DNA from: an uncultured Ruminococcus sp.
GTDB lineage: Bacteria; Bacillota; Clostridia; Oscillospirales; Acutalibacteraceae
NCBI GenBank assembly: GCA_902786345.1
Contig: CADACB010000005.1
Span: 502-64,501, forward strand
Reading direction: 5' to 3'
Length of the DNA stretch: 64,000 bases
Position 1 is the stretch's first letter. Every line of letters starts with the position of its first letter. The translations under genes and the position numbers were made by a program. Shown here piece after piece: positions 9,361 through 64,000 of this stretch. A model generated the notes under the pieces. The model made no database searches. It was not told the origin of the DNA and saw only the letters and a program-made list of their open reading frames with translations.

Positions 9361-9397
9361 TCTTTTCGTAATTATTTTATGGAGATGAAATATTATT

Positions 9398-15214: not shown

Positions 15215-15218
15215 GAAA

Positions 15219-15896
15219 TCAATTATCCTCTTTTATATTCTGATTTTTTTCTGACATTCTGATCGAACCCGTTTTTACATTTCTTAACATTTTAACAATT
15301 CCTATGCTATCAATAGATTTTATCATAATCGGTATGAAAATTAATTGTATCGCTGTCATAACAGCAATTTGAGGCAGACGTGTAATAAAAAATGTCATAT
15401 AACTTGTTTTATACAGAATATTCAGCCATAAGGGAGTAACAAAAGCACTTATCAAAAGCTGTGAGATCACAACAGAAATCACTGCACTCAGCTTTTCTCT
15501 GACAGTCTGAAGACTGTTATCCTTAAGAAGAATACCAAAAACAATACCTGTAATTATTGCAGTTACCGTAATTGGCGGAAACCAAGGTCCTGTAGGATGA
15601 CATATATACCCTATAATATCTCCAAGACCTGCAACCAGACCTGCTCCCCGGATACCATAAAGCTTTGCAGCTATCATAACCGGAATGAAATCCAGCGTAA
15701 TTTTCAAGGCATCTGTCTTTATCGTACAAAACAACGACAGTACTACAAGCAAGGCTGTAAGCATTGCTATAATCGTAAGATTCATTGTTGAGCTTTTAAT
15801 GCTTCCTCTTGTAGCAGCTGATATTTTCTCTTTGCCTTTCTGTGCCACGTTTAAACTTTGCTTGCCATCTAAATTTGTTTTTTTCTTTTCTAACAT
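15219..15896 (-). CDS. folT: ECF transporter S component, FolT family (folate uptake)
   Basis: The 225-residue protein has a hydrophilic N-terminal tail of about 40 residues, then about six membrane helices. The pattern IIAMLTALLVVLSLF, ITLDFIPVMIAAKLYG and GLVAGLGDIIGYICHPTGPWFP is typical of FolT-type substrate-binding subunits. S components bind a vitamin and dock on a shared EcfA1-EcfA2-EcfT engine; one such module lies at 25814-28385. A tetrahydrofolate riboswitch sits in the leader, which independently points to folate as the substrate. The ribosome binding site is AAGGAGG. The gene stands alone, with its own terminator. Confidence 0.92.
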   Translation of the reverse strand: MLEKKKTNLDGKQSLNVAQKGKEKISAATRGSIKSSTMNLTIIAMLTALLVVLSLFCTIKTDALKITLDFIPVMIAAKLYGIRGAGLVAGLGDIIGYICHPTGPWFPPITVTAIITGIVFGILLKDNSLQTVREKLSAVISVVISQLLISAFVTPLWLNILYKTSYMTFFITRLPQIAVMTAIQLIFIPIMIKSIDSIGIVKMLRNVKTGSIRMSEKNQNIKEDN

Positions 15897-15963
15897 AAAA
15901 AAACCTCCTTATTTTACAGAAATCGCTGCAATAATAAGAAGTTGCTTTAGCTTAGTATTATTA

Positions 15964-16060
15964 TACAGCGGGATGCAATTCGTGTACCGCAAGAATACTT
16001 TTCGTTCGTACGACAACTCCCCGTTCGCACGACACTTAACGCACACAAATTTACTCTGCA
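15964..16060 (-). ncRNA. Tetrahydrofolate (THF) riboswitch
   Basis: On the minus strand the leader shows the THF-I signature in order: GCAGAGTAAATTTGTGTGCG, TTAAGTGT, GAACGGG, GAGTTGTCG, ACGAACGAAAAG, GCGGTACACGAATTGCATCC, and CGCTGT. The two ends pair (CAGAG-type with CGCTG), and the conserved GCATCC block is present. The riboswitch lies about 70 bases before the folT start, so folate levels probably control translation or transcription of folT. Confidence 0.9.
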
Positions 16061-16109
16061 AAAATAATATATCATCTCACGCGTTTTTTGTCAATACTCC
16101 AATTTTTTT

Positions 16110-16285
16110 ACCAGCTGCCGGTGCGTACCCGCACAAGACAACTCGGTGCGTGACCGCACAAGACAACTCGCGATTGCGTTCGCTTACGCTCACTTTGATT
16201 ATCCAAACCAAACACATACGCTCATCGCGGTTTTCCCTTCTCCACACTCCTTGCGTAGTGCTTTAGGAAGGGGTTCTGTGTAAAC
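16110..16285 (+). repeat. Dispersed repeat element, copy C (most complete)
   Basis: Contains two tandem 25-base units starting at 16120 and 16145 (GGTGCGT...CAAGACAACTC). These are followed by GCGATTGCGTTCGCTTACGC, TCACTTTGATTATCCAAACC, ACATACGCTCATCGCGG, and the hairpin with CCCTTC (16235-16240) and GAAGGG (16267-16272). It ends TTCTGTGTAAAC, as in copy D. Confidence 0.8.
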
Positions 16286-16321
16286 TGACAGATAAATGCA
16301 AAAAAGTAGATATTTTAAATT

Positions 16322-16366
16322 AAAACCTCGAAGAAATGCTCATCTTGAAGCAAGCTTCGAGGTTTT
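16322..16366 (-). terminator. Intrinsic terminator of clpE
   Basis: A perfect 12-base stem, AAAACCTCGAAG and CTTCGAGGTTTT, has a 21-base loop. It lies about 70 bases downstream of the clpE stop, with T-rich sequence on the minus side. Confidence 0.75.
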
Positions 16367-16434
16367 GATTTATAAACTATTCTTTTTTCTTTTTTGACGA
16401 TTACAGCAAGCTAAATTATACCGACTGTTTTCTC

Positions 16435-18759
16435 TTACAAAATTTCCAGCTTTATTGAGTCTTCATCAGCTGTAACATTTATAGCTGCAATTTCACCTGT
16501 ACGGCTATTAACTATTGCAGAAGCTATTTTGTCCTCAACCTCACGTCTTATAAGGTTACGCAGATCTCTTGCACCGCTCTTTCCACCGTATGCTTTACCC
16601 GCAAGATACTTCTGTGCCTTCTCATCAAAGGTAAAGTTAATTCCCTTTTCTTTAAGCGAGCCAACATATTCGTTAAGCATAAGAGCTGATATTGCAACAA
16701 AATCAGCCTCAGTAAGATGTCTGAATATTATTACTTCATCAAGTCTGCTGAGGAATTCCGGACGAAGAAATTCAGAAAGTGCAGCTCTCACTTTTTCATT
16801 TGTCGCCTCAGTCTCTGTCTTTGCAAAGCCGAGTGCATTTTCCTTACGTTCACTTCCTGCATTTGACGTCATAACAATAACGGTATTACTGAAATTCACC
16901 TTTCTGCCCTGGGCATCTGTAAGCACACCTTCATCAAGTATCTGAAGAAGAATATTAAGAACATCCGGATGTGCCTTTTCTATCTCATCAAACAGCAATA
17001 CTGAATATGGACGGCGTCTTACCTTTTCTGTTACCTGTCCTGCTTCCTCATAACCAACATAGCCCGGAGGTGAACCGATGATTTTTGACACCGAATGCTT
17101 CTCCATAAACTCAGACATATCAAGTCTTATAAGCGTTTCGGGCGTATTGAAAAGCTCCTCAGAAAGCACCTTTACAAGCTCTGTTTTTCCGACGCCTGTA
17201 GGTCCTACAAAAATAAATGATGCAGGTCTGCGGCGAGGACTTATCTGCACTCTGCTGCGTTTTACAGCCGCTGCAAGAGCTTCAACAGCCTCATCCTGAC
17301 CTATAACCTTGCTTTTCAGATGATCCTCAAGATCAGCAAGCTTATTAAGCTCATTTTCCTGTACCTTAGATGCAGGAATGCCTGTCCAAAGCTCTATAAC
17401 GTGAGCTATATCCTCTTCCGTAACGTAAGCCGTAAGCTTTTCCTTATCTATTTCATTAAGCTTTTTTTCAAGCCTTGCAATGTCATATCTCACTGTAGCA
17501 AGATTTTCATAATCAATCTCGCTCTGTCCGGCAAGCTCTTCCTCGGTTTTCTTAAGTTCCTCAAGCTTGGCATTGTCACGGTCATAGCTTTCAAGCTCCT
17601 TATTTCTCAGTGCTGCGTGAGTGCATGATTCATCCAGCAGATCTATTGCCTTATCCGGCAGAAAGCGGTCTGTGATATATCTTTCAGACAGTACAACAGT
17701 TTTTCTTACTATCTCATCAGACATTCTGACTCTGTGATATTCCTCATAATAGGATTTTATACCCATTATCACATCTATGGTTTCACCGATTGACGGTTCT
17801 GCAACAGTAACCGGTTGAAAACGTCTTTCAAGTGCAGCATCCTTTTCAATATATTTTCTGTATTCATTGAAGGTAGTAGCACCTATAACCTGTATCTCGC
17901 CTCTTGAGAGTGCAGGTTTCATAATATTTGCCGCATTCATTGCACCCTCAGACTCACCTGTACCGACAAGGCTATGTACCTCGTCAATGAAAAGTATGAT
18001 ATTGCCGTCTGCCTTGACCTCCTCGATCAAGCCTTTTATACGGCTTTCAAACTGACCTCTGAACTGTGTACCAGCAACAAGTGCTGTAAGATCAAGAAGA
18101 TGTATTTCCTTTTTTTGAAGTCTGAGCGGCACATCTCCCGAAACAATTTTCAATGCAAGACCTTCTGCTATTGCAGTTTTTCCGACACCAGGCTCACCAA
18201 TCAGACAAGGGTTGTTCTTAGTTCTTCTGCTGAGTATCTGTATTACTCTGTCAAGCTCCTTATCTCTTCCGACTATTTTGTCAAGCTGACCGTTTGCAGC
18301 TCTTCCGGTAAGATCAGTGCAATATGCTTCAAGATGCTTACGCTTGCGTTTTTTTGCTGCTTTATCGTCCTTTTTATTTTTTTCTTCTTTTTCTGATTTT
18401 TGTTTAGAATCCCCTCTTGAAGCACCTGAGAAAAGATTCTTGAAAAAAGGCGGAAACGCAGGTGCACCTCCACGGCTGAAATCCTCATCCTCATTTTCTT
18501 CCATACCATCCTCGGTATCCGCCATCATTTCGTCAAAATTCTCGGGTATCATTCCCGATTCCATAAGCTCCCCCATCTGGTTCTGCATCATATCAATATC
18601 TTCCTCAGATATTCCCATCTTATCCATTATATCCGTAACAGGCTTTATACCTGCTTCTCTTGCACATGTAAGGCAGTAACCTACAGAATCTGAGGTATCC
18701 GCTGAATTTGACACGAACACCACCGCAGGTCTTTTATTGCATCTGCTGCAAAGCATCAT
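16435..18759 (-). CDS. clpE: ClpE-type AAA+ chaperone, ATPase subunit of the Clp protease
   Basis: This 774-residue Clp/Hsp100 unfoldase feeds substrates to ClpP. The N-terminus is a short zinc finger ([11 protein letters not shown]...[10 protein letters not shown]), not the double-helical N-domain of ClpC; that distinguishes ClpE. A long acidic then Lys-rich linker (residues about 60-145) leads into AAA-1 with Walker [14 protein letters not shown] near 190 and [11 protein letters not shown] middle coiled coil follows at about 400-450. AAA-2 has [13 protein letters not shown] and [12 protein letters not shown]. The linker is longer than in Bacillus ClpE. No CtsR or CIRCE site is evident upstream. 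It probably handles misfolded protein under stress. Confidence 0.9.
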
Positions 18760-51996: not shown

Positions 51997-54921
51997 TTAC
52001 TTTCCTATAGTAACAGAGAAATATTTCTTTGTTACATTGCCTTCGGCATCCTTTACCTTGATACAGTAATCATAAGAAACTCCCTTTGACGGAGCTATCG
52101 TTAATGCATTGTTTGCATTGAAGCTCTGCTTGTTGATCCACTTTTTATCAGCGGTCTTCTTATAGCAGAAAGCATATGTGCACGCACCTGTATATCCTGT
52201 TGCAGAGCCCTTGAGAGTTACCTTGTCACCAACCGTAATCGTTGAGGTATTTACCAAGCCCTTTGTAACTTCAACATCAAAATACTTCTTAGCTATAGTT
52301 CCTGTGCTGTCTTTAACCTTAACGCATACCTGATATTTTGTTGCCACTTTAGGTGTTATAGCAACCGACGCATTAGTCTTGAAGCTCTGCTTTGTAGTCC
52401 ACTTCTTATCTGTAGTCTTTTTGTAGAACACAGCATAGGTATACTCGCCCATACCGCCTGTTGCAGATGCCTTAACGTTCAAGTTCTTGCCTAATACAAT
52501 CTTTGAGGCAGATACTGTTGATGTATTTACAAGCTTCTTGTTGACTTTTACATCAAAGTATTTCTTTGCGACATTGCCCTCTCCGTCCTTAACCTTAACA
52601 CAAACCTGATATGTTGTTGCCGCCTTAGGTGTTATAGTAACCTTTGTGTTTGTTTTAAAGCTTTGTGCAGTTGTCCACTTTTTATCTGAGGACTTTTTAT
52701 AAAATACAGCATAAGTATATTCGCCCATACCGTCTGTTGCAGATGCCTTAACATCAACACTGCCGCCAAGAACTATATTTTCTGCCGATATGGTTGATGT
52801 GTTGGCAAGCGGCTTGTTTACAATAACCTTAAGATACTTCTTATCTATTGTACCCTCGCTGTCTTTCACCTTGACACAGATGTCATATTTTGTTGCTGCC
52901 TTAGGTGTGATAACGACCTTTGTATTTGCCTTGAAGCTCTGGGCTGTTGTCCATTTTTTATCTGTTGTTTTCTTGTAGAATACAGCATATGTATAGCCGC
53001 CCTTGCCGCCCTTTGCAGATGCAGTCACTGTCACGCTGTTACCCTTTACTATTGCACGTGCAGAAGCTGTTGAAGTGTTCTTGAGCGGATCTTTTACATT
53101 GAGTGTAAAATCAAGTGATGCTGTCTTGCCTGTCTTTACATCCTTGACTGTAACACGCATATCATAGCCCTTAGCAAACTGAGGCTTAAGAGAAGCTGTT
53201 GCATTAGGAGTATAATCCTGCTTTGTCACCCATTTATCTGAATCACCCTGCTTATAGTAGTAAGCATATCTGTATTCACCTGAACCGCCTTCTGCTGCTC
53301 CATTAAATGTAACGGTGCTGCCAAGATTGATCTCGTTTGCAGAAATTGTTGATTTGTTTACAAGCTTTTCATATACATTTACATTTATGATCTTATCCGC
53401 AACAGAACCGTTACCGTCCTTTACCTTTATCATAACCTGATAAGGAACTGCTTTCTGAGGTTTTACAGAAGCTGATACATTTGTGCTGTAGTCCTGTATT
53501 TTTGTCCAGCCTGAATTAGCTGACTGCTTATAATACATAGCATAAAGATATGTACCATAACCGCCCTCTGCTGCTGCCTTTATATTGATCTTCTCACCGA
53601 TTGTAAGCTCTGTTGAAGTAAGCTTGGAATTATTCTTGAGAACTGCCGGAACAGTGATCTTTCTTTCAACAGACTTTTCTGTTGTTTCGTCACAGCCTGT
53701 AAGAACCTTAAAGTTATATTCACCTGCTGAAATTGTTCCGGCAACCTTAACGGTCCATGTTATCTGCTGAATCTTATTCTTTTCAATAGTACCTATAGTT
53801 TTAACTGCCGTGCCGCCCACTACAGACATACCTTTTGGGAGAACAAGTCTTGCATATGAGTTATGAGCATCTGTGCTTCCAACGTTTTCAACATATGCAG
53901 TTACAGTAACATTATTATAGATAGGATTGCCGGTTGTCTGATCAACAGCCTTTGACGTTACAATTGAATCGCCGTATACGCTGAGAGAAAGCGGCGGTGC
54001 AACATCCTGTGTAAGCTCGCTGAGTCCGTAATATGTTGAATATGTACGTGTTTCGCCCGCACCAAGCTCTTTTTCATACCATGTAATACCGACAGCACTG
54101 TCACCGTTATCGCTGTCCTCACTGATTTTGTAATCCCAGCTTTTTGATCTTATAGAGCTCCAGTTACAAAACTGAACCTTATCGGGATTATTTGAAGAAT
54201 CACCGTCACGAAGGAATGAACCCTGTGAAATAACCTTTGGTGAAGTAAGGCTGTCAAATGCCTGCCAGTACTGAGGAATATTGTCTCCCTCAAACTCTGT
54301 TTCTGTTGTAACATCTCCATAGCCTGCAACTCTGAAAGGTGCATGGTCATTAGAACCAAGCTTTGTGTCAAACATAATTCTCAGACCGGTTGTGTGTGCA
54401 ACCGTATCAGTGTTTGTAAGAATATACTTAATCTCAAGAACGTCCTCTCTGCCGGTAGAAACATTCTTTACAAAAGAGAGCTGCTGTGTTGCCTTTATTT
54501 TTCCGTAGTCGGCTGTTTCTGTATGCTTCTTTTCAGCTGCGGAATATTCAGGATCTACGGAAAATCCGTCAGCGCCATATTCGTAATTCTCGCCGTCAAC
54601 TACTATTGTATCATAAGCAGACCATATATTATCGGGAAAACCGTAAAGAAGCATTGCATCGTCATCAGTGTCTATATCGGGATTTCCGCCTGTTGTACCG
54701 AGAACATATTTGCCGTTACTTTTAACATCGACCTCAATATACGCATTACGCATACTTGCACCATCCACAGTAACTGCATTAGGATCGGTTACAGCAGCCC
54801 GTGAACTTTCAGCACCTGTTTCGGCCGCACTTACCAACGTGCTGCCAAGTCCTACGCCTGTACCTGCTACCATAGTCATGGTAAGTGCCGTAGATGTAAA
54901 AACCTTCAGAAGCTTTTTCAA
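51997..54921 (-). CDS. Secreted protein with six triple-tyrosine (Y_Y_Y-like) Ig-type repeats
   Basis: The TTG at 54921 is preferred because AGGAGG lies nine bases before it and falls inside the longer ATG frame. A signal peptide of about 30 residues ends near STLVSAAETGA. Residues about 40-330 form a unique beta-rich domain, followed by an Ig-like stretch to about 425. Then come six tandem repeats of about 92 residues (the last 86). Each shows NTSTIS..., a Gly-rich GMGEYTYAVFYKK turn, KWTTAQSF, ITPKAATKYQVCVKVKDSEG and KKYFDV. Repeats three to five are very alike, which points to recent duplication. There is no sortase or dockerin signal, so it is freely secreted or held by partners. The function is unknown; adhesion is possible. 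Confidence 0.82.
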   Translation of the reverse strand: MKKLLKVFTSTALTMTMVAGTGVGLGSTLVSAAETGAESSRAAVTDPNAVTVDGASMRNAYIEVDVKSNGKYVLGTTGGNPDIDTDDDAMLLYGFPDNIWSAYDTIVVDGENYEYGADGFSVDPEYSAAEKKHTETADYGKIKATQQLSFVKNVSTGREDVLEIKYILTNTDTVAHTTGLRIMFDTKLGSNDHAPFRVAGYGDVTTETEFEGDNIPQYWQAFDSLTSPKVISQGSFLRDGDSSNNPDKVQFCNWSSIRSKSWDYKISEDSDNGDSAVGITWYEKELGAGETRTYSTYYGLSELTQDVAPPLSLSVYGDSIVTSKAVDQTTGNPIYNNVTVTAYVENVGSTDAHNSYARLVLPKGMSVVGGTAVKTIGTIEKNKIQQITWTVKVAGTISAGEYNFKVLTGCDETTEKSVERKITVPAVLKNNSKLTSTELTIGEKINIKAAAEGGYGTYLYAMYYKQSANSGWTKIQDYSTNVSASVKPQKAVPYQVMIKVKDGNGSVADKIINVNVYEKLVNKSTISANEINLGSTVTFNGAAEGGSGEYRYAYYYKQGDSDKWVTKQDYTPNATASLKPQFAKGYDMRVTVKDVKTGKTASLDFTLNVKDPLKNTSTASARAIVKGNSVTVTASAKGGKGGYTYAVFYKKTTDKKWTTAQSFKANTKVVITPKAATKYDICVKVKDSEGTIDKKYLKVIVNKPLANTSTISAENIVLGGSVDVKASATDGMGEYTYAVFYKKSSDKKWTTAQSFKTNTKVTITPKAATTYQVCVKVKDGEGNVAKKYFDVKVNKKLVNTSTVSASKIVLGKNLNVKASATGGMGEYTYAVFYKKTTDKKWTTKQSFKTNASVAITPKVATKYQVCVKVKDSTGTIAKKYFDVEVTKGLVNTSTITVGDKVTLKGSATGYTGACTYAFCYKKTADKKWINKQSFNANNALTIAPSKGVSYDYCIKVKDAEGNVTKKYFSVTIGK

Positions 54922-55237
54922 TTCAGAATTCCTCCTCATTTATATAACTGTCATACTGACACAAACGTTTGAAAAGCAGCCTGTCTGCCTCTCTTTGTTC
55001 ATTATATATTCATATTTTTTAAATGTCAATTATATATTTTTCGCTGTCCTCACCTATTGAAATCCTTATATTTATACCTACAGAAAAAATTATAGAATAT
55101 ATACAAAAGACTGTTATTATCACCTTAAACATATGAAAAAATATATTATATATTTTGATCACATTTTACAAAAACAACATATTTAATTTCTATTTTTAAA
55201 TATCCATTAGTTTATCTGATGAAAATATTTTTTTATC

Positions 55238-56046: not shown

Positions 56047-56083
56047 AAAAAGCCGGTGAAGCTTATTGCTCCATCGGCTTTTT
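56047..56083. terminator. Bidirectional terminator ending the DUF2798 gene and the phage-like cluster
   Basis: AAAAAGCCGGTG pairs with CATCGGCTTTTT (one G-T pair) around a 13-base loop, with A and T runs on both sides. It marks the 3' end of both convergent units. Confidence 0.88.
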
Positions 56084-56106
56084 ATAACGCTGAAATTCAT
56101 AAGTTA

Positions 56107-56580
56107 TTACAATGTTAATACAACTTCAAAGTCTGTCCACGCAGGCATAAGCTCCCTCATACTTTCTTCAAACTCTTTACGACGACTTTCAGACATAAGT
56201 TCAAAGCAATTGAAGGTAATTTTAAGATCAGTTGGTGAAAAAACAAATTCACCAGTAATATTGAAGCTGTCTCTTAGTTTTTCCATTCCTTCATAGTTAA
56301 AATCATTGCAGCCGATAGAAAGAGCCTTGAGCAGACGTCTGCGTCTGCCATCAATACTGCTGTTAAAATTAACTCTTCTGAGCATATTTTCTCTGAGGGT
56401 TAAACCATATGAATCTGCTGTAGCTGCAAAACATTCTCTTTCAAGCTCGGCAAGCTCCTCAAAAAAAATATCAAGTCCTTCGGCATACGCCATAAGCTCG
56501 GCATATAATACAGTTTCCTCTTCAACTTTGTATATACCTGTCTTTTCCAGTATTCCTTTCATAATATCAAATTCAGACAT
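56107..56580 (-). CDS. Phage tail/baseplate protein, DUF2313 (YmfQ, Mu gp48-like)
   Basis: The 157-residue protein fits the DUF2313 group of baseplate proteins that follow gpJ in contractile-tail phages. Visible features are an early ELAELERECFAATADSYGLT segment, DGRRRRLLKALS, and a C-terminal PTDLKITFNCFELM and MRELMPAWTDFEV. In phage Mu and PBSX-like elements it helps attach tail fibres. Here it is the last gene of the cluster, with no fibre gene after it. It is nine bases from the baseplate J gene. Confidence 0.75.
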   Translation of the reverse strand: MSEFDIMKGILEKTGIYKVEEETVLYAELMAYAEGLDIFFEELAELERECFAATADSYGLTLRENMLRRVNFNSSIDGRRRRLLKALSIGCNDFNYEGMEKLRDSFNITGEFVFSPTDLKITFNCFELMSESRRKEFEESMRELMPAWTDFEVVLTL

Positions 56581-56589
56581 ACATCCTCC

Positions 56590-57648
56590 TCAGCTTATCA
56601 GCCCTATGTTTAAAGTACCTAAAACTGCCATAAATGCATTTGGAATCTCTGTATCCTCCATATTTTCAAAGGAATAATCGCTGACACCCTCTGTTTCAAG
56701 CAGAGCCTTTCCAAGTGCAGATAAACGTACATTCTCGCCAACAGAAATATCAAGAAAGAACTTTCTTATACATTCCTCGGCATTTGCTCTTACATTACTC
56801 CAGTTATAGCCCTTTTCAGGTGCAATATTGACACTCACGTTAACTAATAATGTACTTGTATTTTCAACAAGTATGTCTATTCCTAACGGCTTTGCATTTT
56901 CAAGTGCTTCACTTGCTGCAGCAAAGCTTTCAGAAGACGGCGCCTCACCTCTGCCTCCTAATATCACAACAATTCTTCCGGGTTCGGCAGAGGGCCTGTA
57001 TACATTAGCTGATTGTATACCATCTATTCCTTCAGCAACTGACTCAAAAAAAGCAGCATTAGCACCATTCGGCGTCAACCTGTAGCTTTCCTCTATTCTT
57101 TTTCTTAAAGCTTCGTCATCCTCATCATCCGTTCCTCCTGTAAATGAGGACGAATTATTTATGCTGATACCTACAGAAAAATATGTAACTATTGTTTTTA
57201 TCTTTCCCATACCGATATTATATTTTTTTCCGCTGTGCTCAGCTTCACAGTTTGCCATAAGAACCGTACTTCCTCTTCTTATCGTATATTCTTCGGTCGT
57301 AACATAATTCAATGTTCCATCAGCAGTAGTGCATATAGTTCCTGCCGGTACAATGACGTTATATTCAACAGGCATATCAAGCATAAACGCTACGCTTCCC
57401 TTTGCCTTTTTTCCTGTCTGTCTTTTCAGTCCCCTCTGCTGTGCATGAAGATCAAGCTGTTTACCAGAAGCAGTGTTCGGAAACATTTGTTTCTTTATCC
57501 AATCAATATTTGTACTAAGGGAATAAAGTTCCCCTGCCAGAAGTCTTAACCTTATACCTATATCGCTTGCCTTTTCAGGTGCATAGCCTGAAAGCTCGGT
57601 AAATTTATTATTCATTCGTTCAACAAGCTCATCATATGTAATATTCAA
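56590..57648 (-). CDS. Baseplate J/gp47-family protein
   Basis: This 352-residue baseplate wedge protein of contractile tails matches the family in length and order. It starts MNITYDELVERMNNKF and has GTICTTADGTLNYVTTEEY, a VPAGT turn, SFTGGTDDEDDEALRKRI and the PNGANAAFFESVAEGIDGI stretch. A late VNIAPEKGYNWSNVRAN segment is also typical. The start overlaps the gp25 gene stop by four bases. It is intact, as expected for a working baseplate. Confidence 0.9.
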   Translation of the reverse strand: MNITYDELVERMNNKFTELSGYAPEKASDIGIRLRLLAGELYSLSTNIDWIKKQMFPNTASGKQLDLHAQQRGLKRQTGKKAKGSVAFMLDMPVEYNVIVPAGTICTTADGTLNYVTTEEYTIRRGSTVLMANCEAEHSGKKYNIGMGKIKTIVTYFSVGISINNSSSFTGGTDDEDDEALRKRIEESYRLTPNGANAAFFESVAEGIDGIQSANVYRPSAEPGRIVVILGGRGEAPSSESFAAASEALENAKPLGIDILVENTSTLLVNVSVNIAPEKGYNWSNVRANAEECIRKFFLDISVGENVRLSALGKALLETEGVSDYSFENMEDTEIPNAFMAVLGTLNIGLIS

Positions 57649-57980
57649 TTACTCATCCCCCTGATATTAATATCGTAATTTTCTCCATTATACATAACTG
57701 AAACACATATCATTCCGTCCTGAGCAGATACCCCCGTCACCTCTGCCTCAGGAAATCGGCTCAATGCTTTTCTTGCCTCTGCTTCAATCTGCTGCATATC
57801 ATCAACACACTTATAAAGTCCGCTTCCAAGCTCTCTGTCATAAATAAAACTTCCCTTTTTCATTGACAGCATAATATACAGCTTTTGTTTTACTTCTTCA
57901 TTTCCCGATATAAAGAAGATATTATTGTTTTCATCCTTATCAAAATCACCATTTATACAAAGTGCTGTATCCAACATCAT
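57645..57980 (-). CDS. gp25-like baseplate wedge protein
   Basis: The 111-residue protein shows SGNEEVKQKLYIMLSMKKGS followed by YDRELGSGLY, the usual gp25/XkdS-type lysozyme-like wedge core, and a short beta-strand C-terminus (VMYNGENYDINIRG). It precedes the J protein in transcription order, as in most contractile-tail phages. It overlaps the spike gene stop and the J start by four bases each. Confidence 0.75.
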   Translation of the reverse strand: MMLDTALCINGDFDKDENNNIFFISGNEEVKQKLYIMLSMKKGSFIYDRELGSGLYKCVDDMQQIEAEARKALSRFPEAEVTGVSAQDGMICVSVMYNGENYDINIRGMSN

Positions 57981-58348
57981 TCCCCCAGTCTGACTCCGTT
58001 TACATACACATCACCGACAATATCTATTTTACCGTCTTCCTTAAGATGAATATACGTACTCATGCCGGAATAGATCACAATTTCTCCCGGCTTCAATCCA
58101 TAATAATTATATATCTGTTTGACACCTATACACATCCGTTCACTATCACCCGAAATAACTACCGCATCGGTTTCTGTTTTAGGAATAGATTCAATTCCCC
58201 ACGGTGCAACTATAGAAAACTGTCCTGTACCGTTTATTGCCGAGGCAGATATTCTTCTGTCGGCACTGTTATGTATTCTTCCGGCAGTACAGGATTTAGT
58301 GATCTGTTTTTTACCCACAAGCTTTTCTGAAAGCTTCATTTCATTCAT
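57977..58348 (-). CDS. Putative baseplate spike/assembly protein
   Basis: This 123-residue protein has a beta-rich sequence with an early SAINGTGQFSIVAPWGIESI, a central GLKPGEIVIYS and an end HLKEDGKIDIVGDVYVNGV. The end is like the repeated-strand tip of gpV/gp45 spike proteins. The position between hub and gp25 supports this. Sequence similarity alone is not decisive. It overlaps both neighbours by a few bases. Confidence 0.6.
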   Translation of the reverse strand: MNEMKLSEKLVGKKQITKSCTAGRIHNSADRRISASAINGTGQFSIVAPWGIESIPKTETDAVVISGDSERMCIGVKQIYNYYGLKPGEIVIYSGMSTYIHLKEDGKIDIVGDVYVNGVRLGE

Positions 58349-59261
58349 CCTCCCTTTTCAATCTTGCATATATTTTAGTATGCTCTCCTGACGAATCAAA
58401 CGAATAATTTATTTCTTTGACAATATAATGCTTTTTATCCCTGCCTATTATAAGTTGTGCACCTATACTGCATAATATACGGCCGCAGCAGTCAGCCGTT
58501 ATTTGTTCATATTCAGAAAAGCTTTTTTTCATAAGTCTTTTTGCTGTAAGAACAGTTCTGCTTTTACTGTCAATTGAATTGATATATCTTCTGCGCTTTA
58601 TTCCGAGCTTTTTTGCAGAATTATTTTCTATCTGCATCTCATAACCTCCGCCGGTATAGGTCCTTGCAATCATCTGTGAAATAAGATTTTTGTTTTTCAG
58701 GCTTCTTTTTATTGATATTATTCTCTCCGGCTGTAAATAAACAGTTTCATTTATATTGCCTGTTATATCAATTGTTCCGTCGGTATGGATTCTTGGAACT
58801 GTACCGATAAATGCATCGCAAAAGCTTTTAAGAACCGTCCATTCGCTCATTCCTTTGCTTACTGTCATTTCTCCGTTAAAAGCTTCATCCGACCCGATAA
58901 AATGCTCAAATCCCAAAGGCGAAAAATGTCTTTTCATAAGCAGCGGCATAGACGGTATACAATAGGTCTGAGGCATAGCTTCGTTATCAAGAAGTATGCA
59001 GGCAAGGCTTCTTGCATAAACCGTCAGCAGCATACCTTCTGCTGTTTCTTCTGTTACCTGCTCATCAACAAGACCGTAAAAAAGTCTTTCAATTCCATCA
59101 AGCATTTCAACACTTTCAATAACCGGTATATTTCCATCAACAGCAAATACGGCCGTAAGTCTGTCGGCAGGCGCTTCTTCAGAGGATACAAAGCTAACCT
59201 TAAGAGGCTTTTTCAATTCAGTTATTTTCCCGTTCGTATCCTTAAGAATAAATTTCAGCAT
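58341..59261 (-). CDS. Baseplate hub protein (XkdQ/gp44-like)
   Basis: The 306-residue protein has the beta-barrel layout of phage tail hubs: an early VSFVSSEEAPADRLTAVF, RLFYGLVDEQ, a central GSDEAFNGEMTVSKGMSEWT and a late CCGRILCSIGAQLIIGRDKK. XkdQ and gpD-type hubs hold the spike at the base of the tail tube. It lies between the LysM protein and the spike, the order of PBSX-type phages. It overlaps the LysM gene by seven bases. Confidence 0.75.
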   Translation of the reverse strand: MLKFILKDTNGKITELKKPLKVSFVSSEEAPADRLTAVFAVDGNIPVIESVEMLDGIERLFYGLVDEQVTEETAEGMLLTVYARSLACILLDNEAMPQTYCIPSMPLLMKRHFSPLGFEHFIGSDEAFNGEMTVSKGMSEWTVLKSFCDAFIGTVPRIHTDGTIDITGNINETVYLQPERIISIKRSLKNKNLISQMIARTYTGGGYEMQIENNSAKKLGIKRRRYINSIDSKSRTVLTAKRLMKKSFSEYEQITADCCGRILCSIGAQLIIGRDKKHYIVKEINYSFDSSGEHTKIYARLKREDE

Positions 59262-59776
59262 AGCACTATTCTCCTTCCGGCTTCAAGCGGTATATCAGGG
59301 CGCATAATATCCGGGTTAAGCTCTCTCAGAAGCTCAATATTTTCTCCGCTCATACAAGCATAATCCCACAACGAATGCACACCGTCCGCAAGCACATATG
59401 CAAGCTCCTCAGGATCATTATTTTCTCTGCTTTCTGTAAAGCTGAAGCTGTATTTTATCACACCCTCAAGATCACTGCCAAGCATTTCCAGTTCCGTAAA
59501 ATATGCGAATACAGGTTTTTGAGACGGAACATAAAGTATTTCCCGATTATTTCTTTCAAGCATTGTTCTGAGTTTTTCAAAATCACTTAATGCATTTTCT
59601 CCGTAGAATTCTCCCTCTCCGCTTATAAGTCTGACATTTTTTCCCGTGTCACATACAAAGTCTTCACCATATGGAACGCTTCTTTTCGATACCTTTCTTT
59701 TATGGCTGATTTTTATAAGATAAGGATTCACAGGGAAAATAAAATTTCCAAAGCTCATTTTTCCATTACAATTCAT
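59255..59776 (-). CDS. LysM-containing tail protein (XkdP-like)
   Basis: The ATG at 59776 follows GGAGGAGGAG. The 173-residue protein begins with a beta-rich part (GNFIFPVNPYLIKISHKRKV and FYGENALSDFEKLRTML). It ends in a LysM domain (SLWDYACMSGENIELLRELN and IPLEAGRRIVLC). In PBSX-like phages XkdP lies between the tape measure and the hub. Here the tape measure expected upstream is missing. The start overlaps the 51-aa ORF by 11 bases. Confidence 0.75.
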   Translation of the reverse strand: MNCNGKMSFGNFIFPVNPYLIKISHKRKVSKRSVPYGEDFVCDTGKNVRLISGEGEFYGENALSDFEKLRTMLERNNREILYVPSQKPVFAYFTELEMLGSDLEGVIKYSFSFTESRENNDPEELAYVLADGVHSLWDYACMSGENIELLRELNPDIMRPDIPLEAGRRIVLC

Positions 59777-59921
59777 TGATCTCCTCCTCCGCCTCAAGAA
59801 TCCTTTCATATCTTAATGCGTCATAACTTATGATCTCCGAAATATCTGTAAGCTCCTGCATTTCAGTTGCATAAAAGTTTTTTTGTTTTCTTATTTTCTC
59901 AACATCTTCAAGCTCCCTCAT
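59766..59921 (-). CDS. Small helical protein in the tape-measure position (51 aa)
   Basis: An ATG at 59921 opens MRELEDVEKIRKQKNFYATE and continues MQELTDISEIISYDALRYER to INEL, then stops. It is charged and predicted helical. It overlaps the tube-like gene before it by 14 bases and the LysM gene after it by 11, which favours a real coupled gene. In relatives this place holds the tail-assembly chaperone and a long tape measure; this ORF might be a chaperone relic or a very small replacement. Confidence 0.6.
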   Translation of the reverse strand: MRELEDVEKIRKQKNFYATEMQELTDISEIISYDALRYERILEAEEEINEL

Positions 59922-60300
59922 TAACTTCCTCCGTCCTCATTTTCAGTGCAGTTATGCTTATATGTTCACGAAAACTTTCCCTGTCGGCAACAGCCTTAAA
60001 ATCATCCCACAAGCAGCCCTCAAGTATAATTTTCATACCATCAATTTCCACCTCTGCACTAAAATAATCAAGATCATAATAATTACAGTTTTCAAACGGC
60101 TGTCTGAATCTTACTCCCACCAGATTGAGCTTATATTCTCTTCTGCCCTCAATATGTGCCACATCACCGCTGCAAAAACAAGTTCTTACCCTGTGAATAT
60201 CAGAGATTCTGTGCAGTATGGCACTTTCGGCTTGAAGCAGCCTTCTGCCGTTTATTGATATACACACATCTCTTCCGCTGACCAATATCTTCTTATCCAC
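59908..60300 (-). CDS. Putative tail tube-like protein (130 aa)
   Basis: The sequence alternates short strands: VSGRDVCISINGRRLLQAES, REYKLNLVGVRF, then YFSAEVEIDGMKIILEGCLW and a late HISITALKM. Length, position after the tail terminator and the strand pattern resemble the tube proteins of contractile tails (XkdM/gp19 type). The identity is inferred, not shown by a strong motif. The usual sheath gene, which would precede it, is absent. It starts three bases after the stop of the 139-aa gene. Confidence 0.5.
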   Translation of the reverse strand: MDKKILVSGRDVCISINGRRLLQAESAILHRISDIHRVRTCFCSGDVAHIEGRREYKLNLVGVRFRQPFENCNYYDLDYFSAEVEIDGMKIILEGCLWDDFKAVADRESFREHISITALKMRTEEVNEGA

Positions 60301-60303
60301 ACT

Positions 60304-60723
60304 TCACACTCCGCTTCCGATCTCAATACTCTGTTCTCCCAACGAAAACCTCATTATTACTTTATATGCAAAATTCAGTTTATCGTACATAAATTTCTCA
60401 ATGCTTACCGTACTTATCAATTTTCCGACATCAGCATCAAGTACGGCCGAGCATATTTTTGCAGCACATTTTTCTGCAAAAGACCCTCCCTTTTTTTCAT
60501 CAACAGAAACACTGACAATAATTCTCTCGCTGCCCGTTATCTCATTATCATAACCAAGCAAAAACGAAAGCTTTTCAGTTTTTTCAACGCCTATACAAAC
60601 CAGAGGCTTTTCTATAGGATAGCTGATCTCTCCTGAATCATAGCTTTTAACTATCTCAAAGTTATCAAGCTCACTGTTGTTTTTCAGTTCGGTTATAATT
60701 TCATCCACAAAATCACCTGTCAC
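60304..60723 (-). CDS. Putative tail terminator/completion protein (139 aa)
   Basis: The protein begins MTGDFVDEIITELKNNSELD and has RIIVSVSVDEKKGGSF and FAYKVIMRFSLGEQSIEIG. A small alpha-beta protein of this size in this place, after two connector genes, is usually the tail terminator or completion protein. No signature motif is seen, so the name rests mainly on position. It is four bases after the 108-aa gene. Confidence 0.5.
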   Translation of the reverse strand: MTGDFVDEIITELKNNSELDNFEIVKSYDSGEISYPIEKPLVCIGVEKTEKLSFLLGYDNEITGSERIIVSVSVDEKKGGSFAEKCAAKICSAVLDADVGKLISTVSIEKFMYDKLNFAYKVIMRFSLGEQSIEIGSGV

Positions 60724-60727
60724 AGCC

Positions 60728-61054
60728 TCAATCTCCTTTCACCCTTCTTACACACACTCTTGCATAATCACCAAGTCTACAGCAATAATTATCCTTCCAG
60801 ATAATCACATACTTGTTTTTTCCCTCAAAAACCAGATCACCATATTTTGAATTTTCAACAAGACTTACGGCACAGAACATTATGTATCTTTCAGGATCGC
60901 TTCTTCCGTTGGCAGCAGTTTCCACATTACCCCATTGCTTATGTCTGTATCTTATCGGATACAATACTGCAATGCCTTTAACAAGTCCTTCACTTCCCTC
61001 AACCAATACCTTTGTACCTATTCTTTCAATAGCCTTTTCAAATCCTCTGCTCAT
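60728..61054 (-). CDS. Putative head-closure protein (108 aa)
   Basis: This 108-residue protein has a beta-rich sequence with KAIERIGTKVLVEGSEGLVKG, KYGDLVFEGKNKYVIIW and a cysteine-rich end DNYCCRLGDYARVCVRRVKGD. Its size and position after a gp6-like connector suggest a head-closure or stopper protein of a siphovirus or myovirus neck. The call is by context. It is four bases after the 118-aa gene. Confidence 0.5.
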   Translation of the reverse strand: MSRGFEKAIERIGTKVLVEGSEGLVKGIAVLYPIRYRHKQWGNVETAANGRSDPERYIMFCAVSLVENSKYGDLVFEGKNKYVIIWKDNYCCRLGDYARVCVRRVKGD

Positions 61055-61057
61055 TTC

Positions 61058-61414
61058 TCATATCCTTTCAAACACAAAATCCTTATCCTCCGCAATATCA
61101 CTTATATCAGCAAGTGCTTCTTTAAGAATTTTTTCAGCATATTCAAGCTTTTTTTCAGGACTTTTAAGCGAGATTTCACCTATTGTAATATTTCCTCCGC
61201 CCTCATCCGTAAACGATAAAAGCACATATCTGTAATAAGCCAGAGCCGCAGCCGCATATTCAGTTCTGCTGTTGTCATTTTCCTTTGCTGTTTCTCTGAG
61301 CCTTGACGAAATATTCTCTTCAGCCATCTCGCATAAAAAACGATATTCCGTAACTGAATCCTCGTCTATTCCTGCAAAGCTGCCAAACAACCGCATTATA
61401 TTTTCAATATTCAA
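61058..61414 (-). CDS. Putative head-tail connector (gp6-like)
   Basis: The 118-residue, mostly helical protein begins MNIENIMRLFGSFAGIDEDS. It has a central YRFLCEMAEENISSRLRETA and AYYRYVLLSF, and an end YAEKILKEALADISDIAED. It fits the helical gp6-type connector in size and place, following the capsid gene. It is separated from the capsid by 173 bases holding a hairpin at 61505-61538. Confidence 0.55.
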   Translation of the reverse strand: MNIENIMRLFGSFAGIDEDSVTEYRFLCEMAEENISSRLRETAKENDNSRTEYAAAALAYYRYVLLSFTDEGGGNITIGEISLKSPEKKLEYAEKILKEALADISDIAEDKDFVFERI

Positions 61415-61504
61415 ATATTAAGCCTCCTTTTTAAGGTTTTATAACAGGCGTAAATTTTTTTACATTTCCTGAACTCATTTTCCCTGTTTATGCTTTCGGA
61501 ATCA

Positions 61505-61538
61505 GGCACGGCAGTACACAAACATTTTCCGCCGTGCC
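61505..61538. terminator. Hairpin between the capsid and connector genes
   Basis: GGCACGGC and GCCGTGCC form a perfect eight-base stem with an 18-base loop and no U-run. It may limit read-through so that capsid exceeds tail proteins. Confidence 0.45.
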
Positions 61539-61587
61539 GGTCAACCGAATTAAATATTATTCATATAAAAATGAATGTCACACCACA

Positions 61588-62595
61588 TCAGCAGGCAAGA
61601 ACCTTTGAAGCACCATTAAAGATTTTTGCAAAACCTGCCGTACAGCTTATAGAAGCACGTTCAAGCTGACGGTCAATAAGCTTATCAGAATCCATTGTGA
61701 TACCGCCTGACTGTACCATTTCAAGTGCACAGCCCTTGTCAAGACCGATGATCTTTGAAGAAACCATTGAAGGTATATGCAGAAGCTTTGCTCCCATAGG
61801 TGTTATCATTTTTCCTGTACCCTGGAACGTAAGTCCTGCCTGTGCATCCTTCATTTCAGTAAGTGCAAGAAGTTTTTTCATAACATCAGTAGGTGCAAGC
61901 ATAGTGTTAAGCTCATAAGGAGTAAGCTTACCCCAAAGATTCAAAAGATCGTCATATGTAACAGTACCGCTTGAAGCAACATTTACAGTTTCCGCAGCAT
62001 TGTTATTGCCGTCACCGCTGATGAGTACATTTACCGCATCCTTAAGCTGCTCTCTGGCTATATATGCACCTATCTGTCTGAGAGTAACGGTAAACAGATC
62101 AAGTCTCTGATACTTTATTGCCTCATATGATGCAACAAGCATTCTGCCTCTTTTTATAAGCTTAACAAGATTTTCGTTTGTTCTTACACTTGTCTGAGGA
62201 AGTACAGCTCCCTCTGCTACAGGCTTAAGCGACTTCTCATCGTCTGTTGGGGATGATACCACCGAACGATAATCCATACCGTCTATCACAGTTTTTGAAG
62301 CTATAATATCCGAAAGATAATCGGCATTCTCCATTCCCTGTCTTACGGCTCTTGATACATATTCAGGAAACAGTGCGGCGGAGTTAGAGGTTTCAAAAAA
62401 CTTCTGAACGCTGTCTGAATATGCACCACCAACCTTAATATCATATCTTTTCAGCTGTCTCTGAAACGCATCCAGACCTTCAAGCACCGTACCCTTATAG
62501 TTTTCCGACGGATCAAGTCCCTCAAGAACCTCAGTAAGAGTTTTTCCTCCATTATACATACCCTTTTCCAGCTTAATTGAATCATAAAATGCCAT
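61588..62595 (-). CDS. HK97-type major capsid protein
   Basis: The 335-residue protein carries HK97-like features: an N-terminal arm (MAFYDSIKLEKGMYNGGK), SAALFPEYVSRAVRQGMENA, the E-loop-like region near DYRSVVSSPTD, VASYEAIKYQRLDLFTVTL, and a C-terminal GCALEMVQSGGITMDSDKLI. It follows a protease and a decoration gene, the standard head order. The length is normal for the mature type with no large delta domain. It is intact. Confidence 0.85.
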   Translation of the reverse strand: MAFYDSIKLEKGMYNGGKTLTEVLEGLDPSENYKGTVLEGLDAFQRQLKRYDIKVGGAYSDSVQKFFETSNSAALFPEYVSRAVRQGMENADYLSDIIASKTVIDGMDYRSVVSSPTDDEKSLKPVAEGAVLPQTSVRTNENLVKLIKRGRMLVASYEAIKYQRLDLFTVTLRQIGAYIAREQLKDAVNVLISGDGNNNAAETVNVASSGTVTYDDLLNLWGKLTPYELNTMLAPTDVMKKLLALTEMKDAQAGLTFQGTGKMITPMGAKLLHIPSMVSSKIIGLDKGCALEMVQSGGITMDSDKLIDRQLERASISCTAGFAKIFNGASKVLAC

Positions 62596-62618
62596 AGCTT
62601 AATTCCTCCTTGTTAAAA

Positions 62619-62957
62619 TCAAAGTATAAATCCCACTGTATTTGCCGTTGAATCAACATCAACTACAAGATACTCTCTGCCGTTTGTTGCGTCAGCCTTA
62701 ACCTTGCCGCCTGTTGCAGCCGCAAGCTTTGTATATCCGACTGAAATACTTCCTGTACTTGGAACAACCACATAGCCCTTGAGCTGAACTGCTGCATATC
62801 CATTCCTTACACTAGTGCATATACCGCAAAAGCTGCCGCTTGTCACCACACTCACCTTACCGTTTGCTGTAATAGAAACAGGTACACCTGCTGTCACTCC
62901 GCTTTCTGCTTCAAAAGTCATTACACCCTCATCATAACCATTAAAAGATACATTCAT
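62619..62957 (-). CDS. Putative capsid decoration protein (112 aa)
   Basis: A beta-rich, Gly/Ser/Thr-rich protein reads MNVSFNGYDEGVMTFEAESG, GVPVSITANGKVSVV, GYAAVQLKGYVVVP and DVDSTANTVGFIL. Decoration proteins and short head-fibre-like proteins of this kind lie between the protease and the capsid in many phages. The call rests on size, composition and place. Confidence 0.6.
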   Translation of the reverse strand: MNVSFNGYDEGVMTFEAESGVTAGVPVSITANGKVSVVTSGSFCGICTSVRNGYAAVQLKGYVVVPSTGSISVGYTKLAAATGGKVKADATNGREYLVVDVDSTANTVGFIL

Positions 62958-62970
62958 ATTAATTTCCTCC

Positions 62971-63936
62971 TTAAATATTTTTGTAAAGTGTATTATTATT
63001 GCTTATACCGCTCTGCTTAAAAAGCTGCGGCTTCATCGGCAAAATATCCTCTGCCTTTATTTCAAGAGCTTTTTTCAGCTCGTCAAGCTGTCTTACAGAA
63101 AGCTCCTCCGTAATGTGTGCAAGAGTTTCTCTTCCAAGCTGAGGCAGAGCAACTGCCGCAAGTCCTTTGACCTCCTTTATAAGCACATCACGGTAATACT
63201 CACCCTCAGCAGCTTTCTTTTCAAGCATACCGAATTTTTTTACAAGCTCCTGCATTTCCTCTGCAGTGAAACTTTGCTCCTGATTACTGAAAAGCTTCTT
63301 TTCAATATCCATAATATTTTCTCCTTTCTTCGCTGACATTTTAATATCATCTGTTCTGTAGTTTTTCACAACACCTGCTGCTCTCTGAGCAGGAATTGCA
63401 ACAAACGACCATTCATAAGCATCCGTAGGTTCATCAAGTGTTGCATAGCACATCTTACCGGAATATTTCCTGCCCTTGATATGTTCACACACGGATATAT
63501 CCTTTCCGCAAATCGAACATATTCTTTTTTTTACAGAACAGCCTACACTAACCTCTTTTTTTATACCGCTGTCAAGGGCAAGAATAAGTTCACTGCTTTT
63601 TTCTCCTCTCGGAATATAAGCTCTGGCATAAACCCTTTTATAAAGTCTTCCGTCAGCGGTTGTTTTACCCTCAACCGCCTCGGTTCTACACATAAAAATA
63701 CGTGCTGTCTGATTCCTGCTGCTCGGCTCGTGATCGGCAATTCCGGTTACACCAACAAAAAGCTCAGCAAGCTTTTCAAGTGCGTCATCCGAAAATTTCT
63801 CACCATCCCTGTCAATGTCGTTATCGCACAATACAACAGGAAAAACATAAACCTCATCTTCGTTCAGTTCTCTTCTTGTAAACTTATTGATCAGTTCAAG
63901 CTCACCGTCAAGCGGCTTTCCGCAGATTTCTTCCAT
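62971..63936 (-). CDS. Prohead protease/scaffold-like protein (XkdF-like)
   Basis: The ATG at 63936 (MEEICGKPLDGELELINKF) follows AAAGGAATGA. Of 321 residues, the first 190 resemble XkdF-type phage proteases: a VTGIADHEPSS segment, VYARAYIPRG and WSFVAIPAQRAAGV. An inserted Cys/His knot (CSICGKDISVCEH) near residues 135-155 is likely metal-binding. The last 110 residues are a helical scaffold with EKKAAEGEYYRDVLIKEVKG. The gene directly follows the end of an upstream gene off the edge. Confidence 0.7.
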   Translation of the reverse strand: MEEICGKPLDGELELINKFTRRELNEDEVYVFPVVLCDNDIDRDGEKFSDDALEKLAELFVGVTGIADHEPSSRNQTARIFMCRTEAVEGKTTADGRLYKRVYARAYIPRGEKSSELILALDSGIKKEVSVGCSVKKRICSICGKDISVCEHIKGRKYSGKMCYATLDEPTDAYEWSFVAIPAQRAAGVVKNYRTDDIKMSAKKGENIMDIEKKLFSNQEQSFTAEEMQELVKKFGMLEKKAAEGEYYRDVLIKEVKGLAAVALPQLGRETLAHITEELSVRQLDELKKALEIKAEDILPMKPQLFKQSGISNNNTLYKNI

Positions 63937-63940
63937 ATCT

Positions 63941-64000
63941 TCATTCCTTTCCGTCAATGCTTTTTTCCAGTGAAGCCGCCTGTGCATTTAAAAGTTTTGC
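63941..64000 (-). CDS. C-terminal end of an upstream gene, perhaps portal, runs off the right edge
   Basis: The open frame reads to NAQAASLEKSIDGKE with a TGA at 63941-63943, five bases before the protease start. In phages of this type the gene just before the protease is the portal, so that is the best guess. Only 19 codons are visible. Confidence 0.5.
   Translation of the reverse strand, partial: AKLLNAQAASLEKSIDGKE

What the first reader, a model, noticed from the sequence alone, without database searches (positions are those of the whole stretch)
56107..64000. Compact phage-like particle cluster with head and baseplate but no sheath or tape measure
In transcription order the cluster has (by motif or context) an upstream gene end, protease/scaffold, decoration, capsid, three neck or completion genes, a tube-like protein, a 51-aa ORF, then LysM protein, hub, spike, gp25, J and DUF2313. 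The sheath and the tape measure that always lie between completion and LysM genes in contractile phages are absent. Every frame is open, starts and stops overlap, and a bidirectional terminator closes the unit. That looks like a maintained minimal particle, perhaps a domesticated gene-transfer or injection device. A prophage with two deletions is the main alternative.
Basis: partly seen in the sequence, partly recalled or inferred. Interest (0 to 1): 0.82.

Follow-up and report, generated by a model that had tools for sequence, protein, structure and literature searches.

The report
Host-owned phage particle losing its tail
A block of phage head and tail genes, inherited like ordinary chromosomal genes in many gut bacteria, seems to make a DNA-packaging particle whose tail has been stripped down repeatedly, here to a tiny tube and baseplate.

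Summary
The cluster is real and larger than reported: past the window edge come portal, large and small terminase, then host genes (17 genes, about 10.8 kb; no integrase seen, no tRNA). It has no sheath gene. The capsid gene is in 36 of 37 genus genomes, all 17 genes have median dN/dS below 0.5, and over 57 genomes the head-gene tree largely matches host rpoB, so the unit is old and vertically inherited rather than a freshly deleted prophage. Relatives form a graded series: sheath with a 96-265 aa tape-position gene, sheath with a 54-aa one, neither, no tube, head only; sheath loss happened about 6-10 times. The 51-aa ORF resembles the C-terminal end of that tape-position gene in several other clusters, sheathed ones included, so it looks like the tape measure's last piece. 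Best reading: a gene-transfer-agent-like particle of contractile-phage origin with a sheathless, nearly tailless injection end. Packaging and delivery are inferred, not shown. Another gut GTA (FpGTA, Faecalibacterium) was published in 2026; I found no account of parallel tail dismantling. The same genome also holds a tape measure in an unrelated long-tailed prophage.

The parts
63941..64000 (-). 3' end of the portal gene (379 aa; whole gene L001:10443-11582). Beyond the window: TerL (415 aa, L001:11617-12864), TerS (178 aa, L001:12861-13397). Window coordinate = L001 coordinate + 53498
   Evidence: phrog_30703 1.6e-127, phrog_2 1.3e-44, Terminase_2 1.1e-9
62971..63987 (-). 338-aa gene between portal and decoration; globular N half, helical C half; protease/scaffold by position only
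   Evidence: phrog_16951 8.6e-97, function unknown; AF2 pLDDT 85; no PDB match at E<=0.001
62619..62957 (-). head decoration-like protein, 112 aa
   Evidence: phrog_4588 virion structural protein 2.7e-18
61588..62595 (-). major capsid protein, 335 aa
   Evidence: phrog_3922 6.6e-99, PF25209 1.6e-14; 36 of 37 genus genomes
61058..61414 (-). neck/connector protein, 118 aa
   Evidence: position; profile hit in 79 of 80 related loci; no PHROG hit
60728..61054 (-). neck/head-closure protein, 108 aa
   Evidence: position; 76 of 80 loci
60304..60723 (-). tail-completion/terminator-like protein, 139 aa
   Evidence: 69 of 80 loci; lies directly before the sheath gene in sheathed relatives
59908..60300 (-). 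tail tube protein, 130 aa
   Evidence: AF2 and Foldseek; follows the sheath in sheathed relatives
59766..59921 (-). 51-aa ORF: likely C-terminal remnant of the tape-measure-position gene
   Evidence: a profile of the genus ORFs ranks the tape-position ORFs of many other clusters next, including sheathed L062, L097, L098, L109
59255..59809 (-). tube-baseplate protein with LysM-like end, 184 aa
   Evidence: position; 50 of 80 loci; LysM by eye only, no Pfam hit over cut-off
58341..59261 (-). baseplate hub, 306 aa
   Evidence: phrog_177 4.1e-5; 53 of 80 loci
57977..58348 (-). spike-like protein, 123 aa
   Evidence: position; phrog_25991 8e-10, function unknown
57645..57980 (-). gp25/sheath-initiator-like wedge, 111 aa
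   Evidence: PF10934 1.2e-5, below Pfam's cut-off; phrog_120 6.2e-8
56590..57648 (-). Baseplate_J wedge, 352 aa
   Evidence: PF04865 1.3e-42
   Evidence: phrog_521 tail protein 1.1e-8; no Pfam hit over cut-off
56047..56084 (.). bidirectional terminator
   Evidence: inverted repeat with A and T runs; MFE -27.4 with flanks, z -3.78

Best explanation
A host-owned, vertically inherited particle gene cluster (a candidate gene-transfer-agent-like viriform) descended from a contractile-tailed phage. Shown by sequence: a packaging head (TerS, TerL, portal, capsid, neck), a tube-fold protein and a baseplate core, no sheath, and at the tape-measure position only a 51-aa ORF that resembles the C-terminal end of the longer gene of relatives. 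Inferred: TerL fills a small head with short pieces of host DNA; the 51-aa peptide sits in the hub and lets only about 0-2 tube rings form between neck and baseplate, giving a podovirus-like particle whose baseplate meets the recipient wall and lets DNA pass without contraction. Release would need lysis genes encoded elsewhere; none was identified.
For: Capsid gene in 36 of 37 genus genomes (35 single, 1 split over two contigs, 1 none). TerL at E<=1e-160 in 32 of the 43 genomes listed for the family. Head tree against rpoB tree, 57 genomes: 37 of 54 splits shared, shuffle mean 0.28, maximum 2; of 37 head splits with support >=0.95, 1 conflicts. Baseplate against head: 34 of 46 splits, 0 strong conflicts; sheath against head: 9 of 11, 0. 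Median dN/dS 0.087-0.477 in the 17 genes. TerL Walker and nuclease positions at least 97% invariant in 75 sequences (motif roles recalled). Tube fold. 51-aa ORF as tape end, with published support that TMP C-termini anchor at the tip and that about 127 aa extrapolates to zero tail in TP901-1 (PMC5099701, passages; PMC11329794, passages). No integrase seen by eye, no tRNA.
Against: No packaging, particle or transfer datum exists for this genus. TerS still matches Terminase_2 from near its start (profile 4-124 of 141), while the FpGTA TerS is reported to lack an obvious DNA-binding domain (PMC12946183), so packaging may be selective. No lysis gene or receptor fibre was identified; the fibre-like gene of relatives is missing in 17 of 17 genus genomes tested, 5 of 5 controls rang. 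The two genes left of the own cluster are found in 0 of 80 relatives' loci, so the unit has changed address. Baseplate against rpoB has 2 strong conflicts inside the genus (21 of 33 splits shared), so some recombination is likely. The 51-aa profile ranks the longest tape-position ORFs poorly. Several lineages lost the whole tail, so delivery may not be the selected function.
Confidence: 0.6

Rival explanations
1. PBSX-like killing particle: heads carry host DNA but the particle acts as a bacteriocin on kin through its baseplate and does not deliver DNA.
For: PBSX is the Gram-positive precedent and the FpGTA authors leave the same option open for theirs (PMC12946183 section 10). The baseplate genes are under constraint here.
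Against: Killing by PBSX and R-type tailocins uses a contractile tail (recalled); here the sheath is lost 8-10 times on a loss-only count, and the head genes, not the tail genes, are the shared core of the 80 loci.
Confidence: 0.18
2. The head alone is what is selected (for example packaging or shedding DNA from lysing cells); the tail is optional and drifting away, and here is half gone but not yet lost.
For: Head-only clusters with host genes directly after them; 4-5 independent baseplate losses; 18 of 26 genomes of head-only or contig-cut loci have no Baseplate_J match.
Against: In the window's genus the tail genes are constrained (median dN/dS: J 0.16, tube 0.24, hub 0.21), and baseplate and head trees agree.
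Confidence: 0.13
3. A defective prophage in which two deletions removed sheath and tape measure.
For: Gene order is that of a contractile phage with two parts missing (order recalled; sheathed relatives).
Against: The same state is shared across the genus, with host-congruent descent and purifying selection; an intermediate exists (54-aa tape-position ORF beside an intact sheath in L097).
Confidence: 0.04
4. The missing parts are supplied in trans by another prophage.
For: The own genome carries a PF10145 tape measure (849-aa frame) on contig C7 among other tail-like genes.
Against: No sheath-profile match in 61 genus genomes; no PF10145 match in 21 of 31 genus genomes; the C7 block looks siphovirus-like and self-sufficient (by eye).
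Confidence: 0.05

Closest known systems
FpGTA of Faecalibacterium (PMC12946183, Nat Commun 2026; outline, abstract, sections 9, 10, 26 and passages read)
   Same: Gut Clostridia; TerS-TerL-portal-scaffold-capsid operon of about 10 kb, in all twelve Faecalibacterium genomes they examined; about 40 nm particles without identifiable tails; baseplate proteins present; the words sheath and tape measure do not occur in the text.
   Different: FpGTA is split in two operons (head; then baseplate, fibre, receptor binding, holin, endolysin) and called podovirus-like. Here all is in one operon of contractile-phage order and no lysis gene was identified. Homology could not be tested: no named Faecalibacterium sequence was reachable.
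RcGTA of Rhodobacter capsulatus (PMC7296036, passages)
   Same: Head-tail gene cluster of a GTA; short tube of five discs and a short tape measure; its structure 6tba is among the tube fold matches (rank 48, E 7.3e-3).
   Different: Siphovirus-like, with a needle-like tape trimer; no contractile ancestry or stepwise tail loss that I know of.
PBSX of Bacillus subtilis
   Same: Same order of tail genes (xkd order recalled: sheath, tube, chaperone, tape, LysM, hub, gp25, J, DUF2313).
   Different: PBSX keeps sheath and tape measure and kills; recalled, not compared here.
Sheathed sister clusters in Flavonifractor and others (L078, L081, L083-L086, L098, L101, L109)
   Same: Same head, tube and baseplate genes in the same order.
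   Different: A sheath of about 340-357 aa (PF04984 and PF17482 over cut-off in L081 and L109), a chaperone-like gene and a longer tape-position ORF.

Membership tests
Gene transfer agent (six-point definition of PMC9662315, passages) | Caudoviricete-derived structural proteins | tested here: met
Gene transfer agent (six-point definition of PMC9662315, passages) | Genome fully endogenized in the host genome | tested here: met
   Inside a 129-kb contig with host genes on both sides, no tRNA in 20 kb; 36 of 37 genus genomes
Gene transfer agent (six-point definition of PMC9662315, passages) | Mostly vertical inheritance, co-diversification with hosts | tested here: met
   37 of 54 splits shared with rpoB, 1 strong conflict; baseplate genes 21 of 33, 2 strong conflicts. 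The own genome is not in the rpoB tree (no match held), only its sisters are
Gene transfer agent (six-point definition of PMC9662315, passages) | Cluster cannot be fully packaged because the head is too small | not testable with these tools
   Unit is about 10.8 kb; head size unknown
Gene transfer agent (six-point definition of PMC9662315, passages) | Packages mostly random host DNA | not testable with these tools
   needs sequencing of packaged DNA
Gene transfer agent (six-point definition of PMC9662315, passages) | Delivers DNA to other cells | not testable with these tools
   needs a transfer assay
Contractile phage or R-type particle | Contractile sheath | tested here: not met
   0 of 61 genus genomes with profile A1; 7 of 7 controls ring; PF04984 no match in own genome
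Contractile phage or R-type particle | Full tape measure and its chaperone between tube and LysM gene | tested here: not met
   Only a 51-aa ORF; the chaperone profile hits 9 of 14 sheathed loci and no sheathless tube-bearing one among the 80
FpGTA | Homology of head proteins to RCH50849.1 / RCH50851.1 | not testable with these tools
   sequences not held
Tailocin | Tail without head genes | tested here: not met
   TerS, TerL, portal and capsid present

The most novel reading that the evidence does not exclude
One old, contractile-phage-derived gene-transfer-like particle was fixed in an ancestor of several families of gut Clostridia and is being dismantled in parallel from the tail up: ruler shortened and chaperone dropped, then sheath, tube and baseplate lost, while the packaging head is kept. 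Members like the window's retain a working sheathless, near-tailless injector whose ruler is a 51-aa peptide, smaller than any tape measure I know of.
Probability: 0.45. Interest if true: 0.86.

Novelty: new variant of a known kind. Interest (0 to 1): 0.74.

Why it matters
It would show what a phage must keep once its host owns it, and give a natural deletion series in which the need for sheath, ruler, tube and baseplate in DNA delivery can be tested in related hosts. It also offers candidate loci for the DNA packaging reported in gut Oscillospiraceae and Ruminococcaceae for which that paper names no locus (R. callidus, Gemmiger, Onthomonas; PMC12946183, section 9).

Tried and rejected
Rejected: fresh prophage deletion. 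Sheath in trans. Tailocin (head genes present). Satellite or mobile element: no integrase seen by eye (flanks not scanned with integrase models), no tRNA, host-congruent tree.

Led nowhere: PF04586 protease, no match in the own genome; fold search with the 338-aa 'protease' model, 0 matches at E<=0.001; lysis genes in the cluster (none named by the family scans; a weak endolysin-family hit at E 0.035 on the LysM protein was not counted); fibre-like gene of relatives, 0 of 17 genus genomes; homology to FpGTA (no named sequence reachable). PF20155 tape measure: 1 match below cut-off in 31 genus genomes, none in the own one. Promoter-like sites are no more frequent than in shuffles (40 against 34.5) and terminator-like sites likewise (8 against 7.3).

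Rows dropped: genome contigs gave 112 relatives and the tool kept the best 80, chosen by likeness to the own capsid. The head tree used 76 of 81 taxa. 63 of 70 genomes had an rpoB match (not the own one); 60 loci were returned and 57 used. Five loci were undetermined for the sheath and ten for the baseplate because contigs end. dN/dS uses only pairs with dS<1.5 (4-87 pairs per gene, up to 25 sequences; single-pair maximum 1.31 for the 51-aa ORF). A first rpoB extraction was wrong and was redone; the 7-taxon result is not used. In one search the profile ranked 4 of 11 sheathed tape-position ORFs at 32-43, L091 at 59, and L081, L083-L086 and L101 at 227-10285; L078, L087, L088 and L092 have no usable row there.
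Full report
What is there. The finding's genes are real and open. The window is C5:502-64501 of a 2.35-Mb genome in 75 contigs. To the right the contig continues with portal, TerL and TerS, then genes read as O-acetylhomoserine sulfhydrylase and thymidylate kinase. In transcription order: TerS, TerL, portal, 338-aa protein, decoration, capsid, connector, head closure, tail completion, tube, 51-aa ORF, LysM protein, hub, spike, gp25, J, last tail protein ('DUF2313'): 17 genes, about 10.8 kb, closed by a bidirectional terminator. No tRNA lies in the 20-kb stretch around it; no integrase was seen by eye in the translated frames.

Missing parts. Relatives carry a sheath exactly between tail completion and tube (L081: PF04984 1.8e-11, PF17482 3.5e-15). 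A profile of ten such sheaths finds nothing in 61 genus genomes. The same profile rings in 7 of 7 sheathed genomes and in 2 of 34 others: G488, which is the L087 fragment, and G061, on a contig that also holds a Baseplate_J gene and so looks like a separate prophage. L087 keeps a 117-aa ORF in the sheath's place that matches only the C-terminal part of the profile (positions 260-346, E 3.9e-6). Pfam does not recognise it, so it is a likely, not proven, fossil.

The 51-aa ORF. A profile built from 26 genus copies was scored against the ORFs of the 80 loci (16,026 of 23,299 got a score). Of places 26-43, 15 of 18 are the ORF just before the LysM gene in clusters outside the genus, among them the sheathed L062, L097, L098 and L109 (ranks 32, 33, 38, 43). 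The shared end reads D/E-x-x-R-Y/F. The other sheathed ORFs in the table rank lower: L091 59, L086 227, L085 341, L101 593, L084 994, L081 8973, L083 10285; most of their ends look alike by eye, but the profile does not show it. Lengths of the tape-position ORF are 265, 255, 252, 215, 202, 195, 164, 162, 124, 100, 96 and 54 aa in 12 of the 14 sheathed clusters (two are cut by contig ends), about 47-55 aa in the genus and 37-74 aa in other sheathless clusters (the 252-aa ORF of L098 also matches the chaperone profile, and the start of the 100-aa ORF of L062 is uncertain). The chaperone-like gene before it is found in 9 of 14 sheathed loci, in no sheathless tube-bearing one, and, oddly, in the head-only group L108/L111-L115. 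Published work puts the TMP C-terminus at the tip: in TP901-1 deletion of the last 30 residues leaves only heads and tail length extrapolates to zero at 127 residues (PMC5099701, passages); in diffocin the C-termini are anchored on the spike (PMC11329794, passages). RcGTA has five tube discs around a short tape trimer (PMC7296036, passages). From these I infer no more than about two tube rings here.

Maintained and vertical. The capsid gene is in 36 of 37 genus genomes. In a sample of 394 genomes of the order TerL matches in 134, and at E<=1e-160 in 32 of the 43 listed for the own family (family counts made by hand from the table). Of 24 genus-level loci, 12 hold all 17 genes at 80% length or more; the other 12 lack or shorten one or more, some because a contig ends. 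Median dN/dS runs from 0.087 (TerL) to 0.477 (51-aa ORF). Over 57 genomes the tree of five head genes shares 37 of 54 splits with rpoB (shuffle mean 0.28, maximum 2), Mantel Spearman 0.756 with 0 of 999 permutations as high; 1 of 37 strong head splits conflicts. Baseplate and head trees share 34 of 46 splits with no strong conflict; sheath and head 9 of 11 with none; sheath and rpoB 6 of 7 with none; baseplate and rpoB 21 of 33 with 2 strong conflicts, both inside the window's group. Flanks are shared within some clades (an ilvB/ilvN-like right flank in 7 loci; both flanks in four Flavonifractor-like loci; a rimP-nusA-like flank in the L108 group; names by eye), and one large secreted-protein family lies beside the cluster in the own genome and 16 loci at either end. 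The two genes left of the own cluster occur in 0 of 80 loci, so the unit has moved between addresses while staying in its lineages. Caveat: loci were chosen by likeness to the own capsid (80 best of 112).

Stepwise loss. Among 80 loci plus own, 14 have an intact sheath, 62 do not, 5 are undetermined. Counting losses only, the sheath went 8 times on the rpoB tree and 10 on the head tree; equal-cost parsimony gives 6 changes on either (shuffled labels: mean 9.4-9.5, minimum 7). The baseplate went 4-5 times. Head-only clusters are followed at once by host genes (cotJ-like genes in L065; a nusA-type operon in L108 and L114; names by eye). Of 26 genomes with head-only or contig-cut loci, 18 hold no Baseplate_J match; the 8 that do include L092, whose cluster is cut, G061 with other prophage loci, and the six genomes of the L108 group with long Baseplate_J ORFs elsewhere. 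L070, L073 (Anaeromassilibacillus) and L074 (a Clostridium sp.) lack detectable tail completion and tube but keep the baseplate.

Phage relatives. Among 50,697 phage records the capsid has 13 matches: five unannotated faecal scaffolds at 58-69% identity and eight named-phage records at 23-30%. Of 28 IMG/VR matches, 27 show further genes of the unit beside the capsid and look like the same islands, whole or in part, called as viruses; one differs. No replicating phage with the whole unit was seen in these.

How it most likely works. Head genes and terminase make a DNA-filled head (TerL motif residues invariant in 75 sequences). The neck leads to a very short tube (fold) capped by LysM protein, hub, spike, gp25 and J. 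The 51-aa peptide anchors in the hub. DNA then enters the recipient without contraction. Steps from packaging onward are inferred. Lysis and receptor-binding genes were not found.

Compared with what is known. FpGTA (PMC12946183) shows that Faecalibacterium releases GTA-like particles with about 8.4-8.9 kb DNA and no identifiable tail, and reports 4.6 kb packaging in R. callidus without naming a locus. The present family meets three of the six GTA criteria of PMC9662315; the other three need experiments, so it is a candidate GTA, not a proven one. My literature searches (listings only, apart from the papers named) showed no description of this family or of parallel tail loss; preprints are largely not held, so this is weak evidence of absence.

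Noticed in passing
L201:10001-10981 (IMGVR_UViG_3300032038_000365): A phage-like contig with its own portal-, protease- and capsid-like genes (15160-18330, by eye) also carries a lone extra copy of this family's capsid gene (60% identical to the window's) among early-type genes; possibly a hijacking or interference capsid. A scan with it found no second case.
   Followed up: partly
L118-L123, L125-L129 (genomes of L108, L111-L115): Genomes with head-only clusters beside a nusA-type operon hold elsewhere a 720-722 aa ORF with a Baseplate_J match and, in five of six, a second one nearby (frames of 440-1034 aa): a possible second operon or a separate injection system.
   Followed up: no
L105:11784-12605, L110:11729-12559, L079:8316-9134, also L076, L077, L080: In some head-only clusters the tail-completion gene is about twice its usual length (about 264-277 aa); the three scanned have no Pfam family over its cut-off. 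The extension may replace the tail.
   Followed up: partly
L232:8598-17528 (G000:C7:41000-60999): The window's genome has a separate prophage-like tail block with an 848-aa tape-measure ORF and a 1675-aa ORF; a 348-aa ORF beside them looks like a site-specific recombinase by eye.
   Followed up: partly
L081:13567-14300, L084:12314-12951: Sheathed clusters have two overlapping ORFs after the tube that recall the frameshifted tape-measure chaperone pair (G/GT, recalled) of other phages; the second carries two CxxC motifs.
   Followed up: no
window 51997-54939: Large secreted repeat protein (980 aa, minus strand) just left of the cluster, by reading a host gene.
   Followed up: no
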